DNA of 32,242 nucleotides from the IMG/VR virus record IMGVR_UViG_3300022841_000042, positions 1 to 32,242 of that record; one strand, 5' to 3'. The notes under the pieces are model-generated. The model was not told where the DNA came from, ran no database searches, and worked only from the letters and a program-made list of their open reading frames with translations. The first letter of the stretch is position 1. Every line of letters begins with the position of its first letter. Shown here piece by piece: positions 11,436 through 24,364 of this stretch. This DNA is from a virus. The translations under genes were made by a program, and so were the position numbers.

Positions 11436-11558
11436 CCCCGGAAAGACGGGGACTATAAGAAATGAAGGCTGGCAACGGGTTAGCGCCGTTGCAGGACAAT
11501 TGAGAGCCTTCTAGTGTTGGTAATCCGCTGCTTCATGCGAGCAGCCTTCATTTCTTAT
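11436..11558. other. Structured convergent junction (element B): 16-bp inverted repeat with internal hairpins
   Basis: A perfect 16-base inverted repeat (11455-11470 and 11543-11558) encloses 72 bases. Inside lie a hairpin GCAACGG/CCGTTGC (11472-11478/11486-11492) and a hairpin GCTGCT/AGCAGC (11527-11532/11540-11545). A third hairpin, CCCCG/CGGGG (11436-11440/11447-11451), precedes it. GAAGGCT at 11464-11470 can pair with AGCCTTC at either 11505-11511 or 11543-11549, so two folds compete. The right arm contains the stop codon of the giant polymerase gene. No long T run is present on either strand. Likely a transcription barrier or structured RNA between converging units; not a tRNA. Confidence 0.65.
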
Positions 11559-14500
11559 GGTTTTATAAGCGACATTGTTGCATTGACTGTCGCCAAGTCA
11601 TCTAACACAGTGAAGTACTTAAAAGCTCCAGCCCCAAATGGGTTATTACCAAGGCGTCCCCATACAGAACCATCTAACACGGTGGAACCTAAGTCAATGT
11701 ACTGCTCCATAGCCAATACAGCTAGCACTCTACCTGGCTTTTCTCTCATCAGTGTTAGCAATACTTTTTGTATCCGCAAGAAGTACTTGGTAAACGGCAA
11801 AATGCCCATGTCATCCAGATACTGTAAGGCTTTGTGCATAGGAATGTCGTAGTTCACAAACGAATCACTAGCGTCTTGGATCGCTTTTTCCTTAGTCATA
11901 GGGTTGCGCTTAGTAGTGTTGTGTTGATACAAAGTGTATCGCGCTACAAAGTCAGACAACTGAGTAACACGGCTTAATCCTTGGTACATCTTGGTGTCTT
12001 TCGACATGTACAAGGTTTTAGCCAGACTCTTTACCTTTGGGTTTAGTTTGTCTGTGTATTTACTAACGCTTTGTGCAAACTGTGATGGATAAGAGTAGAG
12101 GTCTTCTTCTAAAGACACATCTTCCACAATAGTAGGCATCAATCCAGAATCAACCAGCTCTTTGATTGGGTTGCGGTCTATTGAATTTTCTAAACGAGCA
12201 ATTCTGCTTGCTATTTCTTTGTCGTTGCCTTGCGTGTAACCGCTGTTGCGTTGTAGCTTGAGTTGCCCCAACTCATCCATGTCACGTTGGTAAGCAGAAG
12301 CTGAACGCAGCGCTACCAAGTGATGGTAAAGAATTGAACGAAGTGGTACACCATTCATAGCCAATAGAGTCATGTTGGAATAAATGTTTCCTAGCATCAC
12401 AATGCCAGTCTTCACCACAATGATGTCTTTCGTTTCAGCTACCAACGCTTGCCAAACTTTTTCTCCTTTGTTTACTATGCTTGCTGCTCGCTTAGCGTAG
12501 TCTTCTGCTTCTTGTGCGCTCATGCCACGGATTCGGCCAGACTGTCGCAAAACAGTGTTCATTCCATAAACAAACATTTTTTCCAAAGATCTTTGCAGCT
12601 TTGGATCTTTTTCAAACATGTCGGCTAAAGACGCTTTGCGATAACCAAACATAATGTCCAGCGTATCGTTTCGTACCACCATGCCTTTGGAACCAAAAAT
12701 AGCTTCTGCGTCTTTTTTGGTTTTCTCTGGCAGCATGTTCCAGATTTCCTTCATGTCTTTATCAGTAGACTCTTGACCTACCAAAACGTAGGCTGTTGGG
12801 TTCTTAACCCAATCCAAATCAAACTGTTCTTTAATAGCTTTCATCGCTGTTTTGTTTTGCTCTTGTGACGTTTCTTTGTCAAAGACAGAACCAGCCATCA
12901 TGCCTAGTACACGCTCAAACCTATTGTCCCGGCTCAAGACACTGTCCTTAGTAGCTTCACTCATCAAGTAACGCCACTTCACTACGTTGCCTTGCTCGTT
13001 AAGCACAGGAGCCATGTGATTGGCTTTCACCTTAGACAAGTCACGCCTTGGTCCAGGCTTAAACATATCTGCAATCGCTTGTGTGCGTGACGCCATCATG
13101 TCTGCGTTAGCAGATGCGTTTTGCGCACCTATATACGTGTTGGTATCTAGGTAACCATTATGGTTTTCAGAGCCTTTGTTTGTCATGCCGGTGATGGACA
13201 CAATGCCTGACACCTTGGATTGCATACCACCACCTTTGCGGATGTAAAGATGTTTGACCTGGCGGTTAGGATCTCCTTTGTCTAAAGAGACACGAGCTCC
13301 TTTTGTATAACCGTGGTTGATTAAATTTTTACCATCAATTTCATTAGCTGATTTGATGTCTACGTTAGGGTCGTAGATCTCAGAGGTATAGCCGTGCATC
13401 ATCAGCTCTGGGCGACCTTTAAAAAGTCTAGCCAATGCTTCTTCTTCTAGATGCTTATGCAGCTTCAAAACAAACTCAACACCGTTTCCATCTGTACGCT
13501 GATTCTCTGTGGCCAGTAATTTAGCTGCTTCGTTGCGTTGAGCTACACCCATGTACTCAATGGAGTACAAGACTGTCAGTACCTCAATAATTTTTTGAGC
13601 TTCTTCCGTGCGTGCTTCTGTCAACTTGCCTTGGTAAGCCGTGCCGTACAGCTTGGCTATGTTGTGTGAGTTCATCATCGTAAACTCACCAGCTACTAGA
13701 CCTGTAGCCACCTGAATAGCCAATGCGTTGGCTTGTTCAATAAAGTAAAACTTAGCATTGTTAAAGCTGTTTAGTTTTGCTTCAAAGCTAGCAATTGATT
13801 TGCTCATCTCAGCTCGGTTGCTCAGCAACTGCTCAATCTCCGGCAGACTAAAGTCTTTCAGCAAAGCATGTGCTCCTGTGCGCATAAAGACCGCTGAGAC
13901 GCTTGATTTGGCCTCAGTAGACAAACGCTTGCCATTGTCTGCAAAAGCCCACAAAGCGCCTTTAGAGGCGTCTGAGATTAAGGTTTTACGCATCTTTTCA
14001 AGCGACTTAGTGCCACGCAACAAAGCTTGCAAGAAAGTAGCTGATCCTTTGAGCTCTCCTAATGCTGAGGCTACTACGCCCAGCTTGCCTTTGAAAGCCG
14101 AGTTGCGCATGGTGCGCAAGTTGTCAATAAAGAAATCAACGTTATCGTCAGCTACTGTTCTGACTAACGCACCAGCTGTGCGTACTCCCAGGTTTGAGTT
14201 CTCTCTGATAAAACTAGAGTTTGCCCAAGAAGAAACTTTATTTCGGGCAACATCAGATGCGGCTTTAACACCATCTTCAAAAGAGTCAGTAAACTTATTA
14301 CGCACTGGGCTGTTTAGCTTGTGCCGCTCTTTGGCTTCTATATCAATAAGTTGACCCACAAGCGCAGTTATTTTTGCATCAGCATTTTGGCCTTTGTAAG
14401 TGTTTGTTACCTTGCCATTAAAGAAAGCCAAGATGTTCTCAAACACAATCTGCAGCCTGTCTGCAAAGCTAACAGCAGAAGAGCGTTGACGGCCTGTCTC

Positions 14501-17500
14501 AGTAGCAGTCTTGAGCATCTGATTAAAGCCTTCATGAGCCAAGCCCATAGCAGCAAACCGAGACAAGTAGTCTGATCGAGAGCCGTTGCTTTGCTCTACC
14601 TTGAAGATAAAATCGTACAGATTTTGCGCATTCGCTTGCTCAGACGGTGTAGCTGTTGTCCAGTCACCTGTGTGAAAGTCTTCTACTTTGAGCTTTTTCT
14701 GGATCTCTGTGTACAGCGCATCTAACTCTTTGTAAGCCACTTTGCTGTGAGCTTCTTTGGCGTCCAGTGCAGCACGCACTGTAGCTTCAACTTGCTCAAT
14801 AACAAACGCACTTTGCTCTGTCATCTTAAAGCCTGAGCCCAAGATTGAAGAAGCAAAAGGAGCAACTCCTGTGTTTAGCGCTTTAAACCAAACATCCATA
14901 GGAGTCAGTGCTTGGTCTTTCATTAAGCTCTCTTTGAACGAGCCAAATGGACCATACAGCTTGCTGACCATGCTACCTAGCAAACCACGCAATTGAGCAT
15001 CAAATGCTGGCGAGATGGTTCCTGTGTCTAGCGCTTCATACAAGTCAATAGTGCTGTAGGTGTTCAATGTTGCTTGCGCAGCGGACACATTCATAGCCAA
15101 GTTTTTGGCACCTGTCTCTTGGCTGCTTTGCTCTTGCAGAGCAGCAGCCGTAGACAGGATGCCTGAAACGTTAGCGATCAAAACACCTAAGCCTTTAGCA
15201 GATGCCGTGTCTTTAAAGCCAAGCAAACCAGCCATGTTGCCAATGAAGGCTTGCAGCAGATCCGTTAGCTTACCCAGCGTGGTGGACTGCATTTGAGCTT
15301 TGGCCAGCACTTCTTGCTGAAACTCTTGATTGGTCATACCCCAAGAAACCAGCTCGTCTAAGTTGCTCAAAGCAGTAGCAAACTTGTCTGATAAGTTACT
15401 TGAATCAGCATATTTACGGGCAACAATCAAAAGCTCATTCAACTCTTTGATGTACGGTTGCAAAGCTTTTTCTTTGCTAGCTAACAAACGAGAAATAGCA
15501 GAGTGCAGCAATTCATGCACCAGCAGTTCAGGCGTTAAACCAGAGCTTTGAAACGCTGGGCTCATCACGTAAATTTCTGTTTTGCCTCCTGCAAATCCAG
15601 TCCAGCCACGAGCATTCTTTTGTACACCTGCAATGGGCAGTGTTGCTGCTGTGTCTGGGGTGATGTATTTCACCATCATCTCTGGATCAATAAACTTGAC
15701 CAGCGCCTTGAGCAGCTTGCTATTGAACCCTGCATTAGGCAAACCAGGCTCGTTCTTGTATTTGCGCAGCAAACCTTGAACCACTCGCTTGAAGTTCACC
15801 TCTTTATTCACTTCAAAGAAGTTAACCAAGTCCTGATCTGGGGCAACTTGAGGAGTGCCCAAAGGACCAAATGGTGTGTCACCTGTTAGCACTTTTGTTT
15901 TAACTGGCACCGGCTTGGTGTCTTGCATGATGTCTGCAGGCTCAGCTTGTGTTTCCGCTCCCAGCTCTTTTTGAAGCAAAGTAGTGATCTGCTGAACAGC
16001 TTTCAAAAGCGCAGGGTTTACCGCGTTATCCAGTTCACCCAACATCTTTGTAGCCATTGCACGGTCATCATCTGAGACAGGGTATTCACCCCCTTGCAAA
16101 GCGTACTGGTCAACAGCTCCCATGATGGCCAAGACCTGCAACTTAATGCTGTCAGCTTCAAAAGCCATAGCCTTCATGCCTTTCACCATGTCAGCCAGCA
16201 ATGTTTTTGGGTCCATTTTTTCTTTGACAGCCAGCGTGTTAATAGCTTTGGCAATGTTAGTAATGGCTGCGGGAGAAACTTCTCCTTTGTCCATCAAAGC
16301 TGCCAGACCCATCACAGTGCGAGACAACGCTGCCAACATTTCATTGGCTGGCGAGAAGTTCAACATCACGTTGAACAGTGATTTGTTCAGGCTCTGAGCT
16401 GCTTCTGTGAAGCCAGCCAAACCTACACCTGTAGCATCAAAGATGTTCAGTGTTTCGCGTTTACCTAAAGACAGCATCATGGCGGCGCTGTCAGCAGAGT
16501 GAATTGAAGACACCAGCATGGCTACACCAGGGTTTTCTTCTACTGTTTCAAAGCCATTGACTTCCATCGTAGTGCCATCTGCAAATTTGATGTCGCTTTT
16601 ATGCGTGTACTTTGTACTGAGCTTCTTGCCTGACTTAGAGATGCGCAAACCAGCATTCAACTGACCTGTTGGCTTGGACATGGGCGTGTGCAACAAAGGC
16701 GTCATTGCTCCCATACGTTTTGCCAGAACAGCTTCTTGTTCAGGGTTCAGGTCATGTACAGCTTTAGGTGCGCCTTTTTCTGTCATGGCAATCTTGCCAT
16801 CACGCGCCAATTCTTCTACATACTCTGTACGCAATGCTTCGTAAGTTGCGTTGTACAGCTCAAAGGCTAAACGTGCTGCTGTGTTGAACTGTGCACGCTT
16901 CTGAATAAAGTTCTCAAAGTCTGTTTCCATCGTGTTCTTAACAGCAAACCCCAGTGTGTTGGAGAAGGCCCGCTTTACAGCTTTTATTTGATCAACGTCA
17001 AACTCAAGCTCCATGAGCTCTTTAACAGTCAGGTTGTGATCAATCCACTCTGCTTTGCCTTGGCTCAAAAGCAAGTTGATATTCCCAATCAGATCCACAC
17101 GGTCTTGTTTAGTAGGGTTCTTCTTAGTTGCCAAGTCTTCAATGCCTGCATAGATAGAATCAACAAAGTTGTTGGCCATGCTTTCTACAGCAGCAAAAAC
17201 AGATGAGCCAAACACCATAGCTGTCAAAGGTGTCTTGATAATGTCTCGCCCAGCCTTCTCAACTTCACCTGTTTCTTTGTTCACCAGCTCGCCTGTGAAC
17301 GCATACACCGCTTGCATCACAACGCTTACTTGACCTGGAGTCATTGAGTAGTTCTTTGCCACAATGCCGCTGACCATCAAGTTTTGAATCTCAGTGTTCA
17401 TGTGCTGAGTTGTGGTTTCATACAAGTCAAAATTACCAACATCTCCACGCCACTGGTTGTAGTTGGTGTGCTTGTTGCCTATCTCAAAAAAGCCACCTCG

Positions 17501-20500
17501 GTTCAACAAGGCATACAAGCCTTCTACTGTGTTGGCTGCACCCAGGAACACGTGGCTCAGCATAGGTCCGTTAGTTACACCGTCTACTTCGCCCATGATT
17601 TTCACAGTGAAGTTTGTCTCGTTTGCTTGGCTGGCGTTTTCCATTTGAGCCAATGCCATTAGCGCCGCCAAAGAAGCTGTATTTTTACCGCCTGCTTTTA
17701 CGCCTGCCAGCAACACTGTTTGCTCTTCTGCACTTAAAACTTCTTCTGAATTTTTAAGGTGCTCTTGCAAGATAGCCACTGCTGCTTGAATAGTAGGGTC
17801 AGCAATCTTTTTCTTGAATATTTCAATGTTGACAACGTTGTCTTTTTTGTCTGTTTTGATGCCCAAGTTCTCAGCAACTCGCAAGTTAAAGTTTTCCATC
17901 TCTGCTGAGTTAGCAAAGTTGACTATGGTTTCCCATGACTTTTGAAACAGCATCTCTCTATGAAATTTGCTTGATTGTGGGTTGATAACGTTGCCATCAA
18001 TTGCCACTCGCTGCTGCTTGTAAGACACGTGCCTAAAAAACATAGGTGCTTTGCCGTCTTTCATTACACCAACAAAATCCATAAACCTAGAGATCTCTCT
18101 GCGCAGGCCATCGTTCTTAGATTGCAGTGGCAGCCGTGTAGAGACATGCGCTGTAGAAGCGTCTACTGACTCAGCACCTGCAATTTGCAGCTGAATGTCC
18201 TCGTCTAACCCACTAAACAAACCTAACATCTCTTGGTTAACGTAGTTGCCCACAGAGTCTTCGTGAGCAATGGCTTTCACAAGCGCTTCAGGCAAACCTT
18301 GCTTTGTATTTTTAGTTGTCTTTTGGTTAGACACAACTGGCGTCATGCTTGGCTCTCGCAAGCTAGACTCCACTGAAAACAGCTTGTTCAGCAAGCCTTG
18401 TGTTTTGCGTGACCCTTCAAATATTTCGGTTGCGTCTTTTGACAACTTAAAGTTTTCGTCTCGTGCAAGACTCAAGAAGTTAAATTTTGCATTTGTTTCT
18501 GTCAAAGAATTGCCCGTTAAAGCAGCCATTTCTTGACCAGAAATAATATTTCGTTTTAGTAAACCAGTGTCTACCATCATCTTCATAATGTGCGCACCAA
18601 GACCGCTTTCTAAGCGAGCCATCTCATTGCTGCCAGCCAATTGATTAACACTCAAGCCAAGAGCTTGAACAGCTCTTTGACCAAGCTGATTGATCACCGT
18701 GTTTTGGCGATTGCCTACAAGCCCCAGTGCTTTTTGTTCTTGAGGCGAGACTGGGTGTGATTCATCCCGATCCAGAAGGCGGTTGATGTCTTCTTTGCTG
18801 TTGACTGCTGATTGGCCAGCGTTCTCTGCAATCCAGCTGAATGCTGCATAGCTCATCGCCGTCTTCAGGTTGGAATCAAGAGTCTCTTTGCCATCAAGAT
18901 CGGTCTGGATTAAAAACTGAAACATGTCACGAAAGAAAAAATCTGACGTTTCAGCAAGGCGCTTGAACTTGTTAGCTTCAAAGACTTTGCTCCAAGTCTT
19001 GTCAGCTTTGCTGAACAAACTTACAACATCTTTTTGCTCTTTGCTCAGCTCAGTCAAATTAACGTAAGTCAACAAAAGACCTGCATCCTTGCGCAACGCA
19101 TCAATAAAGTCTTTGACCATGACCAGTGGTCGCAGTGTGGCGTCACCCTCTCGACCAGGCGATTGCTTGAAGAGATCAGCAATCAAGTTCAGTCTTTTCT
19201 TGTAAGGAGTCCCCTCCGGGGAAGTCTGTTGAAATGCTGATAAAACTCCAGACAACTCAGGAATTTCCTGTTTATCTGTGCTATTCTCCGCATTAGACTC
19301 TTTATTAACTGTAATCCCTTCAGTTGTTTCAGTCTTCTTAGTCTCTACAGTGTTCACAGAAGAGGCGGATGCCTCCTCATTAACTGTAGTTGTCTCAGTT
19401 AAAGTTTCTTTCAGTAGCGCGGCGGCTTTGGCGGCTTTTTGCCCGTTTTCATTTGATTCATTTGCGTCTCCTATTTGAGTGTTAATGGGTGTTGCTCTTG
19501 TGACTCTGGCTGCTCCATCGGCTGTTCCTGCTGGTGTCTCTCTTGCCACTCCAGCTGCTTGAGCATCTTTTGTTTCAACGGCTGCGAGCTGAACTTCTTT
19601 TCCAGCTCCTTGTTTTGGCGACTCTTGGACATTACTCACTCCAGTTGATTTGGTTGAGGTAGCTGTAAATTTGAGGTTGTAAGCGGCTTCCAGCTCACCC
19701 AAAGACTTGCTTAAAGCGTCTGCTTCTTGACGAATGTCGTTAACCAAATCTCTTGAGACAATCGCCAAGCCACCGTTGGTGCGCAATTGCGCTGTTGTCA
19801 TCTTGCCGTCACCGATCTGCCAACTACCGTTCTTATTGATGATCTGTGTGCCTAAGCCGTTTTCCAACGCAGCTTCAGCAACTTCAGCTTTGCTTGTGTG
19901 ATCTGCTTCAAACTTAGCCAGCCCCGTCAACTGCTTCTGCGCTTGACCTGCATTGCTGTCAGCAATAGCCCTGCTCATGCGAGATTTGTATTCTTTGATT
20001 CCTACGCTGCCTTCACTGCCCAGGTAGATTTGGCGAGATACCTCTCCCGCGTCTAGCAACAAGTTCTGAGCCACACGTGCTTCTGAGAACTTGCGCAGGT
20101 AATCTCGCTGGCTTTCTGACAAACCATTGCTTTTGTTTGCCACTAGCTCTCTGATCTTGGCTTGGTCCAACAGCTCAGGTGAAGCCATGGCCAGGTTAAA
20201 GATCTGATTGGCTGCGTCTTTAGACGCTGTAACAGCCACTGAATCAGCAGCATCTACAGTTTGATTGGCAGTAGCCAGCTTCTCAGCAATGTCGCTAGAC
20301 GAGCTAACCGCAGCACTCAGCTGGCTTTTAGCTACATTGGCTTGGTCGATCTGCGCACTCAAATCAGCAAGCTCTTTCTCGATCTTCCTGGTTTGCTTTG
20401 CGTCTTGCGTATTTTGTTTTAGCTCTACAAGCTGAGTCTTTAAATTGCTCAGGTAACTTTTTGTTTTCTCAATCCGCGAAGTGTTAGCAGGGTCTATCTT

Positions 20501-22126
20501 GTCCAAATCAGCTTGCGTCTTGGCAATGGTTTCTTTAACACCTTTAGCCGTGTCTGCTGCAAAGTCCGCCATCAGTGCTTCGCGCTTGGTTTCCAAGACA
20601 GCCACAATTTCATCTGCTTTGGCAATGTTTGCTTGCTTGCTCTCAGGCGTTGCAGTGTCTATTTTGGCGTTGCCTGCCAAAGCAGCAATAGCTTCAGTTG
20701 GGTTGTAACTAGGTGAAGTTGGGTCAGACAACTTAGACACATCGCCAGATGCAATAGCATCTGCTTTAATTTTGTTAGCGTCTTGATATATCTGCGCTTT
20801 TTGTTTAACGCCTTGAGCCAGGCCCATAGGAGCGCCCATAGCCGCACCTGTAACTGCGCCGATAGCAGCGGCATTACCTACGCCTTTATCCCACTGTTGA
20901 TCCAAAGCTACGTTACTAGCAATAGTTTCGCCTGTAGATTGCAGCGCTTCTTCTCCGCCTTCAAAAACAGCCGATCCACCTGTGCGTGTAATAACACCTC
21001 GGTTAGATATACCCAATGTACCTTTGGTAATAGCTTCATCAATGTCACCTAAACCAAGACGAGCAGCTGCTCCACCACTGAGTCTTGCTACGCCTGCACC
21101 CATCACACCTGTGCTAGCTGCCAGCAAAGATTGTTTTAGTGTTAACCGATTGTCTGCTGTTTGATTACGAATGTTTTCAGCACCAGAGCCAGCCATGACC
21201 AAGCCTTCTCCTGCCGCTGTAGCCATTCGGACACCAGCACCTAAAGCTACGATGCCACGGGCTGCTACGCCGCCTGCCAGCATAGGAAACAAAGACTCCA
21301 GCAACATGTGCGGCACAGTGCTTGGGTTGTTAGCAATTTCACTTAGCGTGTTCCAAAAACCTTCTGCACCGTTGACGCTCTGACTAGCAGCCTGCATTTC
21401 AGCCGACTTCAGCGAGTTGATAAACTCTTTGGCCTCTGCTGGTTTGAATCCAGCATCGGCCAAGTACTTGCCTGCTGCACCACCAGACACAAGACTCGCA
21501 ATACCTACAACTGCTTCAGGCACTGCAATAGCAGAGTTAACCAAGCTAAGTCCTGCATCCACACCCATTTGTGCCAAGCCAGTTGGTTTAATACCGTTTT
21601 CATCAGGCGCAACTGTTTTGGCAAGCTTTTCTCTGCGTTGTTCAATTGTTTGAGAAAATGCTGAAGCTCTGTCTGCTTCATTTAAGTAACTGGCGTTGGT
21701 CTTGTTTTGGATACCCAACATCCCTGGTGCTACTTGATTGAGTAAAGCTGTGTCTTCTTCATTAGCTCTACCGGCAATTACTCGCTGATGTGCATTCCTA
21801 GCTTCCAGGCTAATATTGTTTTTAAGAAATTTTGCGTATTGTTCAGTTACACCTGAGCCAACAGCGCCAATACCATCTGTAAGATCATTAACTGTGGCAA
21901 CACCACGATTAATAATCGCACCGCCAGTATCGTTGGGGTTTAATCCAATTCTTCCGACAATAGACTCAGCAACCGCTTTATCACGGGCTTGCTGAAATAG
22001 TCTGCGCTGCTCAAGCTCAGCGATTTTATCTGTACTAGCTTGCTGCAAGTCAGCAAACTTATCTTGAGCTGCAAGAGTATGTGCAGCTGGACCTGTAGTT
22101 ATGAAATCGTCATAATTTGTTGACAT
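11555..22126 (-). CDS. Giant virion RNA polymerase (N4 gp50-like vRNAP), 3,523 residues
   Basis: This is the packaged, injected single-subunit RNA polymerase expected to transcribe early genes from hairpin promoters. Length equals the N4 protein (about 3,500). Residues 1-~850 are Ala/Gly-rich with hydrophobic stretches. A Thr/Glu/Ser-rich linker (~870-955) leads into the polymerase domain (~957-2000). T7-family motifs: R1373 in YKQQRVAIDGNVINPQ (TxxGR-type), D1515 in motif A (GEVDGVTNGPM), R1627/K1631/F1639 in motif B (RDIIKTPLTAMVFG), D1879 in motif C (SIHSADS). Spacing between motifs follows N4 mini-vRNAP. Motif B has Phe instead of Tyr at the nucleotide-discrimination position. A zinc-peptidase motif H2204-E-L-L-H2208 with E2258 (DELVSWG) follows. 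The remainder is long and helical. ATG 22126 follows AAGGTG. The last gene of the late operon. Confidence 0.9.
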   Translation of the reverse strand: MSTNYDDFITTGPAAHTLAAQDKFADLQQASTDKIAELEQRRLFQQARDKAVAESIVGRIGLNPNDTGGAIINRGVATVNDLTDGIGAVGSGVTEQYAKFLKNNISLEARNAHQRVIAGRANEEDTALLNQVAPGMLGIQNKTNASYLNEADRASAFSQTIEQRREKLAKTVAPDENGIKPTGLAQMGVDAGLSLVNSAIAVPEAVVGIASLVSGGAAGKYLADAGFKPAEAKEFINSLKSAEMQAASQSVNGAEGFWNTLSEIANNPSTVPHMLLESLFPMLAGGVAARGIVALGAGVRMATAAGEGLVMAGSGAENIRNQTADNRLTLKQSLLAASTGVMGAGVARLSGGAAARLGLGDIDEAITKGTLGISNRGVITRTGGSAVFEGGEEALQSTGETIASNVALDQQWDKGVGNAAAIGAVTGAAMGAPMGLAQGVKQKAQIYQDANKIKADAIASGDVSKLSDPTSPSYNPTEAIAALAGNAKIDTATPESKQANIAKADEIVAVLETKREALMADFAADTAKGVKETIAKTQADLDKIDPANTSRIEKTKSYLSNLKTQLVELKQNTQDAKQTRKIEKELADLSAQIDQANVAKSQLSAAVSSSSDIAEKLATANQTVDAADSVAVTASKDAANQIFNLAMASPELLDQAKIRELVANKSNGLSESQRDYLRKFSEARVAQNLLLDAGEVSRQIYLGSEGSVGIKEYKSRMSRAIADSNAGQAQKQLTGLAKFEADHTSKAEVAEAALENGLGTQIINKNGSWQIGDGKMTTAQLRTNGGLAIVSRDLVNDIRQEADALSKSLGELEAAYNLKFTATSTKSTGVSNVQESPKQGAGKEVQLAAVETKDAQAAGVARETPAGTADGAARVTRATPINTQIGDANESNENGQKAAKAAALLKETLTETTTVNEEASASSVNTVETKKTETTEGITVNKESNAENSTDKQEIPELSGVLSAFQQTSPEGTPYKKRLNLIADLFKQSPGREGDATLRPLVMVKDFIDALRKDAGLLLTYVNLTELSKEQKDVVSLFSKADKTWSKVFEANKFKRLAETSDFFFRDMFQFLIQTDLDGKETLDSNLKTAMSYAAFSWIAENAGQSAVNSKEDINRLLDRDESHPVSPQEQKALGLVGNRQNTVINQLGQRAVQALGLSVNQLAGSNEMARLESGLGAHIMKMMVDTGLLKRNIISGQEMAALTGNSLTETNAKFNFLSLARDENFKLSKDATEIFEGSRKTQGLLNKLFSVESSLREPSMTPVVSNQKTTKNTKQGLPEALVKAIAHEDSVGNYVNQEMLGLFSGLDEDIQLQIAGAESVDASTAHVSTRLPLQSKNDGLRREISRFMDFVGVMKDGKAPMFFRHVSYKQQRVAIDGNVINPQSSKFHREMLFQKSWETIVNFANSAEMENFNLRVAENLGIKTDKKDNVVNIEIFKKKIADPTIQAAVAILQEHLKNSEEVLSAEEQTVLLAGVKAGGKNTASLAALMALAQMENASQANETNFTVKIMGEVDGVTNGPMLSHVFLGAANTVEGLYALLNRGGFFEIGNKHTNYNQWRGDVGNFDLYETTTQHMNTEIQNLMVSGIVAKNYSMTPGQVSVVMQAVYAFTGELVNKETGEVEKAGRDIIKTPLTAMVFGSSVFAAVESMANNFVDSIYAGIEDLATKKNPTKQDRVDLIGNINLLLSQGKAEWIDHNLTVKELMELEFDVDQIKAVKRAFSNTLGFAVKNTMETDFENFIQKRAQFNTAARLAFELYNATYEALRTEYVEELARDGKIAMTEKGAPKAVHDLNPEQEAVLAKRMGAMTPLLHTPMSKPTGQLNAGLRISKSGKKLSTKYTHKSDIKFADGTTMEVNGFETVEENPGVAMLVSSIHSADSAAMMLSLGKRETLNIFDATGVGLAGFTEAAQSLNKSLFNVMLNFSPANEMLAALSRTVMGLAALMDKGEVSPAAITNIAKAINTLAVKEKMDPKTLLADMVKGMKAMAFEADSIKLQVLAIMGAVDQYALQGGEYPVSDDDRAMATKMLGELDNAVNPALLKAVQQITTLLQKELGAETQAEPADIMQDTKPVPVKTKVLTGDTPFGPLGTPQVAPDQDLVNFFEVNKEVNFKRVVQGLLRKYKNEPGLPNAGFNSKLLKALVKFIDPEMMVKYITPDTAATLPIAGVQKNARGWTGFAGGKTEIYVMSPAFQSSGLTPELLVHELLHSAISRLLASKEKALQPYIKELNELLIVARKYADSSNLSDKFATALSNLDELVSWGMTNQEFQQEVLAKAQMQSTTLGKLTDLLQAFIGNMAGLLGFKDTASAKGLGVLIANVSGILSTAAALQEQSSQETGAKNLAMNVSAAQATLNTYSTIDLYEALDTGTISPAFDAQLRGLLGSMVSKLYGPFGSFKESLMKDQALTPMDVWFKALNTGVAPFASSILGSGFKMTEQSAFVIEQVEATVRAALDAKEAHSKVAYKELDALYTEIQKKLKVEDFHTGDWTTATPSEQANAQNLYDFIFKVEQSNGSRSDYLSRFAAMGLAHEGFNQMLKTATETGRQRSSAVSFADRLQIVFENILAFFNGKVTNTYKGQNADAKITALVGQLIDIEAKERHKLNSPVRNKFTDSFEDGVKAASDVARNKVSSWANSSFIRENSNLGVRTAGALVRTVADDNVDFFIDNLRTMRNSAFKGKLGVVASALGELKGSATFLQALLRGTKSLEKMRKTLISDASKGALWAFADNGKRLSTEAKSSVSAVFMRTGAHALLKDFSLPEIEQLLSNRAEMSKSIASFEAKLNSFNNAKFYFIEQANALAIQVATGLVAGEFTMMNSHNIAKLYGTAYQGKLTEARTEEAQKIIEVLTVLYSIEYMGVAQRNEAAKLLATENQRTDGNGVEFVLKLHKHLEEEALARLFKGRPELMMHGYTSEIYDPNVDIKSANEIDGKNLINHGYTKGARVSLDKGDPNRQVKHLYIRKGGGMQSKVSGIVSITGMTNKGSENHNGYLDTNTYIGAQNASANADMMASRTQAIADMFKPGPRRDLSKVKANHMAPVLNEQGNVVKWRYLMSEATKDSVLSRDNRFERVLGMMAGSVFDKETSQEQNKTAMKAIKEQFDLDWVKNPTAYVLVGQESTDKDMKEIWNMLPEKTKKDAEAIFGSKGMVVRNDTLDIMFGYRKASLADMFEKDPKLQRSLEKMFVYGMNTVLRQSGRIRGMSAQEAEDYAKRAASIVNKGEKVWQALVAETKDIIVVKTGIVMLGNIYSNMTLLAMNGVPLRSILYHHLVALRSASAYQRDMDELGQLKLQRNSGYTQGNDKEIASRIARLENSIDRNPIKELVDSGLMPTIVEDVSLEEDLYSYPSQFAQSVSKYTDKLNPKVKSLAKTLYMSKDTKMYQGLSRVTQLSDFVARYTLYQHNTTKRNPMTKEKAIQDASDSFVNYDIPMHKALQYLDDMGILPFTKYFLRIQKVLLTLMREKPGRVLAVLAMEQYIDLGSTVLDGSVWGRLGNNPFGAGAFKYFTVLDDLATVNATMSLIKP

Positions 22127-22211: not shown

Positions 22212-23798
22212 TTATTTACCTGCTGACGCAGGGGAAGCCATTAAATTACGAACTGCTGTTGTTCGAGCAACTTGCCTACTGGTTTCAGCTTGTTGCAACA
22301 ACTTTGTAACTCTGGAAGTGTTCATGTTTTTCTTTAAAAAAGTTTCAATATCGTCAGCTCGACTTTTATTAAAAACGTTGTTAGTTCCTATCTCTGAACG
22401 TATAGCGGCCAGCATGTCTTGTCTAGACGGAGTTAAAAAGTTTCCTTTTGACACTTCAATACCAGTGGTAGCGGCTTTGTACAAAAAGTTTTGAATATCT
22501 TGCAAATCTTCTTCCATGTCGGTGCCTTTAAACATAGCATCAACATCTTTTGCCAGACTGTCATAACTTTGCATAGCGTCTGGATTTCCTGGTGCATACC
22601 AGTTAGTTTTAGCTTGCTCGGCTTGATTAACTTGTTCTTTAGCTTGTTGCAATCGAATTTCGTAAGCATCATTACCAATTGCGTTATTACTGCCAGAAGT
22701 ATCAAACAAACTCAAAATTTTAGCTCTATTGCGTACAATATCTGCAGCATTAAAACGTGGGTCTTCACTAATTCTCTTAATAAATGCGTTGCCTTGCTGA
22801 GTGTTTCCTGTAATTAGTTGATCAAGTGAAGGCAAGCCTCTTTCTTTGGCTTTTGCATTTAAAGCAGCGCGATCAACTTTAGAAATATTTGCTATGTCTG
22901 GACCACCTGCAGCATTAACAGGTAAATTCATTTCAGCGGCAAGTTGCCCTACGCTAGAAGAGGAATCTGCTAGGCTGTTGTTTACAGCTGAAGCCGCCTC
23001 AGTGCCGAGCTGCATAAACAAAAGATCTGTAGCATTCTCTGTATTACTGCGTGCTGTATTGTTAAGCGCAACACCCGCATTTATTTGAGTTTGTTCTGCT
23101 TGCTTACGCGCTTCAGCAGCCAGGTCTGCTTTAGCTAGGGCATTTGCCAGATCTACAGGGTTATTAACTTTGGCTAAAGCAATATTCTGAGCAGCATCAG
23201 CAATCTTTCCTGGCTGTTCTGCATTAGCAACTTCATTTTTGCGATTATCAGCTGCAGTTTGATTCGCATCTTGTCTTCGTTTGAGGTCGCTATCATAAGC
23301 ATTTTCCATACTTATTGACCACACACGCACTTGTGGGTTACTTGCAACAAGTTCTGCTGCGCCTGCTGTATCGCCAGAAGCCACCAGCATAGCGTGCTGT
23401 TGTTTAATAGGCTCATCGCGGTTGTCTGCTTGTGCGTTGTTAAACGTGTTGCCTTCAGTGGTTTGCTTCTGCAAAGAGGTCACACGCGCATCTGCTGCAC
23501 CCCGCACAGCGGCTTGATTACGTGGGTCAAGTGCTGCCAAGCGTTGGTCCAACACACCTGACATTTGTGCAGCACGCAGGTCTTCAGGCGTTTTATAGCC
23601 ACTGACCATGTTCAAGTAGTCTTCTTGACTAGCTTGACGGCCTCGATCTGCTACCCCTTGATTTGCGTTTTCTCTGTTAGCAATAGCTGCAGAAAAACTA
23701 TCAAGGCCAGCGTTTAAACTTTTCTGTGAGCCTTCTAACAATCTAACAGCATCACTGTTAGATGGCGCATTAACATTTGACCAAGTAATTGCAGCCAT
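22212..23798 (-). CDS. Helical internal virion protein
   Basis: The 528 residues are Ala/Asn/Gln-rich and almost wholly helical, with few aromatic residues and no enzyme motif seen. Long runs with coiled-coil character lie around residues 160-240 and 370-400. Such proteins beside the N4 polymerase gene are virion components, probably ejected with it; that role is inference from position. ATG 23798 overlaps the previous stop by one base (TAATG) with GGAG upstream, so the two genes are translationally coupled. Confidence 0.7.
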   Translation of the reverse strand: MAAITWSNVNAPSNSDAVRLLEGSQKSLNAGLDSFSAAIANRENANQGVADRGRQASQEDYLNMVSGYKTPEDLRAAQMSGVLDQRLAALDPRNQAAVRGAADARVTSLQKQTTEGNTFNNAQADNRDEPIKQQHAMLVASGDTAGAAELVASNPQVRVWSISMENAYDSDLKRRQDANQTAADNRKNEVANAEQPGKIADAAQNIALAKVNNPVDLANALAKADLAAEARKQAEQTQINAGVALNNTARSNTENATDLLFMQLGTEAASAVNNSLADSSSSVGQLAAEMNLPVNAAGGPDIANISKVDRAALNAKAKERGLPSLDQLITGNTQQGNAFIKRISEDPRFNAADIVRNRAKILSLFDTSGSNNAIGNDAYEIRLQQAKEQVNQAEQAKTNWYAPGNPDAMQSYDSLAKDVDAMFKGTDMEEDLQDIQNFLYKAATTGIEVSKGNFLTPSRQDMLAAIRSEIGTNNVFNKSRADDIETFLKKNMNTSRVTKLLQQAETSRQVARTTAVRNLMASPASAGK

Positions 23799-24364
23799 TA
23801 AGCAACTCCATTCTTGTTCATGTAGTCGCCTACAGATTGGTATGCGCCTGAGTTTGAAGCTACCCTAGCAGCTTGGCGATCCTCCAATCGACTGTTAGTC
23901 AAAGTCCTTTGTGCACCAAAGTTTTGTGCTGTTTGCCTTTTGTTTTCAGCAAACATTTCTTTAGCCAAGCCGTATTGCTTCAAGCCAAGATAAGCGTTCA
24001 TTCCACCAGTAGCAGCATTTAAAGCCAAGCCGCCCCAGCCAGGTGCATCTTTAGTTCCTATCATGTTGTCCAACCACGAGCTTTGCGGATTCAAAGACAA
24101 TGCGTTTGTAGTAGGTAAAGCCGTTGCTTTGAAGCCCATACTGCCAGAAGACCCAAACTGGTTGTACATTTGTGGGGATTGTTGCGAATTGCCCCATTGA
24201 TTCATTTGATTTAGTTGATTCATTTGATTCAGCTGACTTGAATCGTATAGTGGAGCTTGCTGCATAAAAGAAGACGGAGTATATTGATTTGCTCCTGAAT
24301 TAGCAGGTAAGCGCAGACCGCCCATGTCTTGCTGTTGCGACAGATTGTAGTTACTCATTGCCAT
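23798..24364 (-). CDS. Q/N-rich virion-associated protein
   Basis: The 188-residue product has a low-complexity N-terminal half dominated by Gln, Asn, Ser and Met, including a tandem NQMNQLNQMNQ stretch (about residues 45-55), then a Gly-rich hydrophobic segment (GWGGLALNAATGGMNAYLGL) and a basic helical tail. Small proteins with a Gly/Ala patch and helix in this position in podoviruses are typically internal head or tail-channel proteins. The start overlaps the preceding gene: ATG 24364 or ATG 24358 (MSNYN) are both possible. Function not established. Confidence 0.65.
   Translation of the reverse strand: MAMSNYNLSQQQDMGGLRLPANSGANQYTPSSFMQQAPLYDSSQLNQMNQLNQMNQWGNSQQSPQMYNQFGSSGSMGFKATALPTTNALSLNPQSSWLDNMIGTKDAPGWGGLALNAATGGMNAYLGLKQYGLAKEMFAENKRQTAQNFGAQRTLTNSRLEDRQAARVASNSGAYQSVGDYMNKNGVA

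What the first reader, a model, noticed from the sequence alone, without database searches (positions are those of the whole stretch)
15353..15517. Zinc-metallopeptidase motif embedded in the virion RNA polymerase
LLVHELLHSAISR (H2204-E2205-xx-H2208) followed 50 residues later by DELVSWGMTNQEF (E2258) matches the HExxH...E gluzincin arrangement seen in large multi-domain phage ejection proteins. It lies just after the polymerase domain. The protein could cleave itself into a free polymerase after injection, or cut host envelope or defence proteins. I do not know such an activity being described for N4 vRNAP.
Basis: partly seen in the sequence, partly recalled or inferred. Interest (0 to 1): 0.72.

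Follow-up and report, generated by a model that had tools for sequence, protein, structure and literature searches.

The report
Zinc-protease domain in ejected phage polymerase
The giant RNA polymerase that this N4-like phage ejects into bacteria carries an intact zinc-protease domain next to its polymerase; such a domain has been reported in phage N4 since 2017, but what it cuts is still unknown.

Summary
H2204-E-xx-H2208 and E2258 lie in a 3523-aa N4-type virion RNA polymerase (window 22126-11555, minus strand), in a confidently predicted, separately folded domain (pLDDT 91, pTM 0.88). Among 166 aligned sequences the two His and the catalytic Glu are invariant (166/166), as is E2258 (165/165 that reach it); 109 of 109 clusters at 70% identity keep all four. 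The fold resembles zincins (N4 vRNAP itself, lethal factor, Pro-Pro endopeptidases). It is not new: Iyer et al. 2017 described the zincin-like metallopeptidase in N4 vRNAP and proposed self-processing or host targets; Evseev 2021 and Bellis 2025 repeat it. The window is a new member. What I add: (1) the same domain sits in polymerase-free ejection proteins of Autographiviridae, so it is not polymerase-specific; (2) the linker between polymerase and protease is hypervariable, without a conserved cleavage site; (3) published full-length N4 gp50 was purified in EDTA, so its stability there does not test a zinc protease; (4) the catalytic Tyr recalled for lethal factor/PPEPs is absent in nearly all vRNAPs. 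Best reading: an entry protease acting after ejection, more likely on another protein than to free the polymerase. No activity or zinc has been shown.

The parts
11555..22126 (-). N4-type virion RNA polymerase gene (3523 aa)
   Evidence: phrog_2206 virion RNA polymerase, E=0, residues 180-3511; tblastn of residues 850-2860 matches 379 phage records
17084..18277 (-). stretch of the polymerase region recognised by Pfam (residues 1284-1681)
   Evidence: PF21867 vRNAP_dom_2 E=0.0012 and PF21894 N4_RNAP_helical E=0.00012, both below Pfam's gathering score
15890..15979 (-). poorly ordered, hypervariable linker between polymerase and protease domain (about residues 2050-2079)
   Evidence: block-mean pLDDT 49-68; 0.28 mean conservation at 2060-2079; very variable length
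15851..15880 (-). short conserved segment (residues 2083-2092, [FW]GxLGxP-like) at the N-terminal edge of the domain
   Evidence: block-mean pLDDT 95 for residues 2080-2089, strands at 2083-2084 and 2087-2089; alignment rows
15077..15880 (-). zincin-like metallopeptidase domain (about residues 2083-2350; C1 of N4 vRNAP)
   Evidence: AlphaFold2 model of residues 2090-2350 with pLDDT 91.4, pTM 0.88; VIA-align to 9pnr Z 8.0 and lethal factor 5d1t Z 8.0
15503..15517 (-). HELLH, residues 2204-2208 (predicted zinc ligands H2204 and H2208, general base E2205)
   Evidence: 166 of 166 sequences; in helix 110-126 of the model
15353..15355 (-). E2258, predicted third zinc ligand
   Evidence: 165 of 165 sequences that reach the column; L127 breaks off before it; in helix 167-176 of the model
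15527..15529 (-). E2200, near-invariant residue of the active-site helix
   Evidence: 161 of 166
15329..15331 (-). N2266, near-invariant, eight residues after E2258
   Evidence: 158 of 166
22212..24364 (-). two genes directly upstream (528 and 188 aa), at the position of N4 gp51 and gp52, the other ejection proteins
   Evidence: phrog_6467 E=4.5e-11 and phrog_2646 E=7.5e-21, both of unknown function; gene order in N4

Best explanation
Residues 2083-2350 form a zincin-type metallopeptidase domain carried inside the virion RNA polymerase, the last-ejected, innermost ejection protein. Predicted chemistry: H2204, H2208 and E2258 hold one zinc and E2205 activates water. The domain travels in the virion as part of the full-length protein and is ejected with it. 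I think it most likely acts during or just after entry on a protein other than the RNAP linker (an ejectosome partner, an envelope protein or a host cytoplasmic protein). Shown here: sequence, conservation, predicted fold, and presence of the same domain in polymerase-free ejection proteins. Inferred: zinc binding, proteolysis, timing and substrate. I put about 0.85 on an active metallopeptidase and about 0.5 on a target in trans.
For: Only the four catalytic positions are invariant in 19 diverse sequences and again in 75; 166/166 H-E-H and 165/165 E; 109/109 clusters at 70% identity. Invariance of E2205, not a metal ligand in zincins, points to catalysis rather than a structural zinc. Confident model with strands followed by the HExxH helix and a Glu helix, similar to N4 vRNAP, lethal factor and PPEPs. 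Same domain with all four residues in Autographiviridae ejection proteins: XAJ24 and FE11 and 7 of 7 further ones; the FE11 domain matches 340 phage records. PDB profile hits to ejection proteins 9sfn_G (6.2e-19), 23sg_S (1.2e-8) and 8vb2_A (1.5e-5). The RNAP linker is hypervariable.
Against: No zinc, activity or substrate is shown by any result here. Foldseek alone gave no PDB match at E<=0.001, and a VIA Z of 8 is within the range the tool calls common for models without a clear match. No Pfam or NCBIfam peptidase model matches the window's domain. The Tyr seven residues before the third-ligand Glu, which I recall as catalytic in lethal factor and PPEP-1, is present in 2 of 165 of the aligned set (Presley vRNAP and the FE11 core protein), so transition-state stabilisation in vRNAPs would need another residue. 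The domain sits in a region reported to be needed for encapsidation, so conservation could partly reflect packaging.
Confidence: 0.55

Rival explanations
1. Self-processing: the domain cuts vRNAP itself after ejection, separating the polymerase from the C-terminal domain that inhibits it.
For: Proposed as one option by Iyer et al. 2017. The domain lies directly beside the RNAP-CTD linker, and the CTD inhibits transcription in vitro in N4. Isolated-RNAP particles are a major cryo-EM population.
Against: N4 vRNAP is packaged unprocessed and recombinant gp50 shows no degradation. The EDTA in its buffers weakens that for the purified protein, but it evidently also stayed full length during expression in E. 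coli (inference). The linker is hypervariable with no conserved site and no Pro-Pro motif of the PPEP kind in the window or N4. Ejection proteins without the polymerase carry the domain.
Confidence: 0.2
2. A zinc site without peptidase activity: structural, or needed only for encapsidation or refolding after ejection.
For: The C-terminal region is reported to be required for encapsidation (the latter cites unpublished data). The LF/PPEP-type Tyr is missing in nearly all vRNAPs.
Against: The catalytic Glu E2205 is as invariant as the ligands, and the site is kept in proteins with very different remaining sequence.
Confidence: 0.15
3. A non-peptidase HExxH enzyme, for example an alpha-ketoglutarate HExxH oxygenase, as alluded to by Bellis et al.
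For: Bellis et al. mention radical SAM-associated HExxH enzymes beside zincins; ChlB HExxH 8s5f appears with VIA Z 3.2.
Against: Lethal factor (Z 8.0) and PPEPs (Z 5.6-6.6) rank well above it; the downstream Glu is invariant.
Confidence: 0.05
4. Chance HExxH with no function.
For: HExxH alone is a weak motif.
Against: 0.027 expected in this protein and 166/166 conserved.
Confidence: 0.005

Closest known systems
N4 gp50 (vRNAP) C1 domain, residues 2124-2375; zincin-like MPTase of polyvalent proteins (Iyer et al. 2017)
   Same: Same protein family, same place after the RNAP, HExxH (N4 H2228) and Glu (N4 E2310, 82 residues after H2228); profile and fold match.
   Different: Window member is a divergent sequence (20% identity to N4 over the domain) with 54 rather than 82 residues from first His to Glu.
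Internal core / ejection proteins of Autographiviridae (PhiM1 8vb2, FE11, KpV475, XAJ24)
   Same: All four catalytic residues in a related domain of an ejected virion protein.
   Different: No polymerase match; the seven KP34/PhiM1-type ones and FE11 keep a Tyr seven residues before the Glu, vRNAPs nearly never do; XAJ24 has a weak SLT transglycosylase match.
Anthrax lethal factor / Pro-Pro endopeptidases (PPEP-1, -2, -3)
   Same: Similar fold (VIA Z 8.0 for 5d1t, 6.6 for PPEP-2) and HExxH...E arrangement.
   Different: No catalytic Tyr at the corresponding spacing in the window (T2251); about 10% identity; no known substrate here.

Membership tests
N4-type virion RNA polymerase | full-length similarity to vRNAP | tested here: met
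   phrog_2206 E=0; tblastn to Schitoviridae vRNAPs covering up to 95% of the query stretch
Zincin (HExxH metallopeptidases) | HExxH on a helix after a beta sheet | tested here: met
Zincin (HExxH metallopeptidases) | third ligand Glu on a following helix (gluzincin type) | tested here: met
   E2258 conserved 165/165, in helix 167-176 of the model; distances to the His residues were not measured
Zincin (HExxH metallopeptidases) | zinc bound | not testable with these tools
   no metal data; coordinates of the models and maps were not available
Zincin (HExxH metallopeptidases) | peptide bond hydrolysis | not testable with these tools
   needs an assay
MPTase of polyvalent proteins (Iyer 2017) | zincin domain in a large multidomain protein delivered with the genome | tested here: met
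   domain order and homology to N4 vRNAP; delivery by homology only
MPTase of polyvalent proteins (Iyer 2017) | placement in one of their 12 clades | not tested
   their alignments were not held
Lethal factor / PPEP-like peptidases | similar fold | tested here: inconclusive
   VIA Z 5.0-8.0, but Foldseek found nothing at E<=0.001
Lethal factor / PPEP-like peptidases | catalytic Tyr 7 residues before the third-ligand Glu (recalled) | tested here: not met
   T2251 in the window; 2 of 165 in the aligned set
alpha-ketoglutarate HExxH oxygenase | HExxH oxygenase fold | tested here: inconclusive
   VIA Z 3.2 to 8s5f

The most novel reading that the evidence does not exclude
The domain is a shared entry protease of short-tailed phages: carried by the innermost ejection protein in both Schitoviridae (fused behind a polymerase) and Autographiviridae (no polymerase), it cuts an envelope, ejectosome or host protein in the first minutes of infection, so injected proteolysis would be a general step of podophage entry.
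Probability: 0.3. Interest if true: 0.75.

Novelty: new member of a known kind. Interest (0 to 1): 0.42.

Why it matters
Every one of the 109 distinct sequence clusters examined keeps a full set of catalytic residues, so the activity seems to be under strong selection, yet no substrate is known. That ejection proteins of another family, without a polymerase, keep the same site moves the question from polymerase release to phage entry, and N4 on E. coli K-12 is a simple system for a direct test.

Tried and rejected
A chance motif was rejected on conservation. A Pro-Pro cleavage site in the linker, suggested by the PPEP resemblance, was looked for within 300 residues of the HExxH: the window and N4 have none, and 4 of 19 proteins have one Pro-Pro each at unrelated places. 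The short conserved segment at the end of the linker was considered as a cleavage site; the second model places it as an ordered strand at the domain edge, so I read it as part of the fold, though without coordinates I cannot exclude that it lies in the active-site cleft. Pfam, NCBIfam: no peptidase family for the window's domain; weak single-member hits such as SprT-like and Peptidase_M91 were not used. Foldseek against PDB gave nothing significant; BFVD gave 12 matches at E<=0.001, among them the Vibrio phage phi 1 vRNAP, an internal core protein and 'Large polyvalent protein associated domain' proteins. Papers mentioning metallopeptidases elsewhere in N4-like genomes (PMC6950046, PMC9525291; passages seen) concern other genes. 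Text searches that listed no report of the domain in KP34-type core proteins; the PhiM1 ejectosome paper (PMC11440229), searched for terms only, has no 'protease', 'peptidase', 'metallo' or 'HExxH' and its 'zinc' hits concern nanoparticles. The DEV paper (PMC10925440, term search) has none of 'protease', 'zinc', 'HExxH'. The library lacks most subscription journals.

Counts and redundancy: the 147 IMG/VR loci include repeats (L022 and L034 are one contig, L085 and L098 one contig) and isolates also present among the 18 fetched proteins (L089 has N4's genome length and is 100% identical to N4 over the domain), which is why the 109-cluster count is given. The structure alignment A5 used 74 of those loci plus the window, A6 49 plus the window.

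Full report
Observation. The window's longest ORF (22126-11555, minus strand, 3523 aa) is an N4-type virion RNA polymerase (phrog_2206, E=0). HELLH begins at residue 2204 and E2258 lies in DELVSWGMTN; the finding's coordinates run exactly from the H2204 codon to the E2258 codon. It is the only HExxH in the protein, with 0.027 expected from composition.

Conservation. tblastn of residues 850-2860 matched 379 phage records, and of residues 2090-2350 matched 236 at E<=1. I fetched 18 full genes: 16 vRNAPs, including N4, and 2 internal virion proteins. All 18 have HExxH at the corresponding place. In their alignment with the window the only invariant columns are H2204, E2205, H2208 and E2258. Two IMG/VR scans gave 66 and 80 loci (the second kept the best 80 of 96), and an earlier one gave L022. 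HExxH was found in 147 of 147. In an alignment of 166 sequences (147 loci, 18 genes, window) H-E-H is 166/166 and E2258 165/165, one locus (L127) breaking off before that column. Because some scan patterns contained the motif, I separated loci by the pattern that picked them: HExxH is present in 80/80 and 15/15 loci picked without it, and E2258 in 41/41 picked without it; of two loci picked only by a third pattern, one has E2258 and the other is L127. Clustered at 70% identity, 109 of 109 keep all four. Next most conserved are E2200 (161/166), N2266 (158/166) and G2174 (152/166).

Structure. AlphaFold2 with 75 sequences gave pLDDT 91.4 and pTM 0.88: strands, then the HExxH helix (model residues 110-126) and a helix with E2258 (167-176). 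Foldseek found no PDB match at E<=0.001. VIA-align on Foldseek's candidates ranked N4 vRNAP 9pnr (Z 8.0, 5.7 A over 172) and lethal factor 5d1t (Z 8.0, 4.0 A over 162) first, then other lethal factor entries, PPEP-2 (6.6), certhrax (6.3), PPEP-3 (6.0) and PPEP-1 (5.9), with the HExxH oxygenase 8s5f at 3.2. The tool warns that Z under 8 may be only a common arrangement; the agreement of the top rows with the sequence-based assignment is what makes it persuasive. A second model with 50 sequences and an N-terminal extension showed a poorly predicted stretch at residues 2050-2079 and a confident edge strand at 2083-2089.

Where else it occurs. A profile of the 19 domains matches, besides N4 entries (trivial, since N4 is in the profile), the solved ejection proteins 9sfn_G (6.2e-19), 23sg_S (1.2e-8) and 8vb2_A, tetrameric ejection protein gp48 (1.5e-5); two Autographiviridae sequences are in that profile, which helps these hits. 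8vb2_A has the length (1263) of the PhiM1 core protein that I fetched. The domain of Vibrio phage FE11 matches 340 records at E<=0.01, the largest groups being Klebsiella (233) and Vibrio (44) phages. Seven fetched core proteins (PhiM1, KpB1, KpV475, KDA1, PS3, PM16, CX5-1) all have HExxH and a following Glu. Five of the nine such proteins were scanned with Pfam and none shows a polymerase match. In the seven, a Tyr sits seven residues before the Glu, as I recall for lethal factor and PPEP-1; in the 165-sequence set, which is mostly vRNAPs, 2 have it, Presley vRNAP and the FE11 core protein.

What is already known. Iyer et al. 2017 (PMC5512222; [quoted passage not shown] Evseev et al. 2021 as I recall the first author (PMC8472413; passages) extend it to Cbunavirus, with a Phyre2 match to PPEP-2. 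Bellis et al. 2025 (PMC12633501, preprint; sections 5, 6, 7, 11, 14, 15, 21, 26 read) solved N4 vRNAP, name C1 (2124-2375) with a conserved HExxH, an unresolved linker 2102-2123 and an inhibitory CTD, and leave the CTD's role open. So the window's feature is a new member of a described kind.

Mechanism. Invariance of E2205 together with the three predicted ligands argues for catalysis. Self-release of the polymerase is disfavoured: the linker is hypervariable in sequence and length (35 loci of the window's clade plus the window), there is no shared Pro-Pro site, the virion form is reported as unprocessed, recombinant gp50 is reported intact, and the domain exists without a polymerase. A caveat of my own: the published gp50 buffers hold 0.5-1 mM EDTA at every step given for the full-length protein, so its intactness, or a lack of metal in the map, would not test the enzyme; that it was obtained at full length after expression in E. 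coli still speaks against constitutive self-cleavage. I therefore favour a target in trans during entry. Nothing here shows zinc, activity or a substrate.

Noticed in passing
L020 (Dinoroseobacter phage DFL12phi1 vRNAP, residue 1085): A second HExxH (HEAAH) lies well before the conserved one at 2322 in this vRNAP; Iyer et al. mention N4-like RNAPs with more than one such domain.
   Followed up: no
L127 (IMGVR_UViG_2700988792_000001): The vRNAP frame breaks off about 25 residues after the HExxH, although tblastn covers the rest of the domain; either a sequencing error or a broken gene.
   Followed up: partly
PQ898399.1 237522-243380 (Enterobacter phage SonariX): A 248,734-base record carries a schitovirus-like vRNAP; the other records listed are mostly 69-79 kb, so this one may be a mixed assembly.
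   Followed up: no
PP852687.1 (Photobacterium phage TEMp-D1): Its domain has the same score and identity as those of several Pseudomonas aeruginosa phages, which sits oddly with the stated host.
   Followed up: no
L001: Contig IMGVR_UViG_3300022822_000140 is 99% identical to the window's vRNAP over residues 1-1686: probably the same virus or a very near one.
   Followed up: no
L017 (Vibrio phage JSF3) and others: vRNAP genes are annotated as ribonuclease E, DNA polymerase or coil-containing protein in several records.
   Followed up: no
window 15851-15880: A [FW]GxLGxP-like segment is conserved right after a hypervariable linker and predicted as an ordered strand; its role is unclear.
   Followed up: partly
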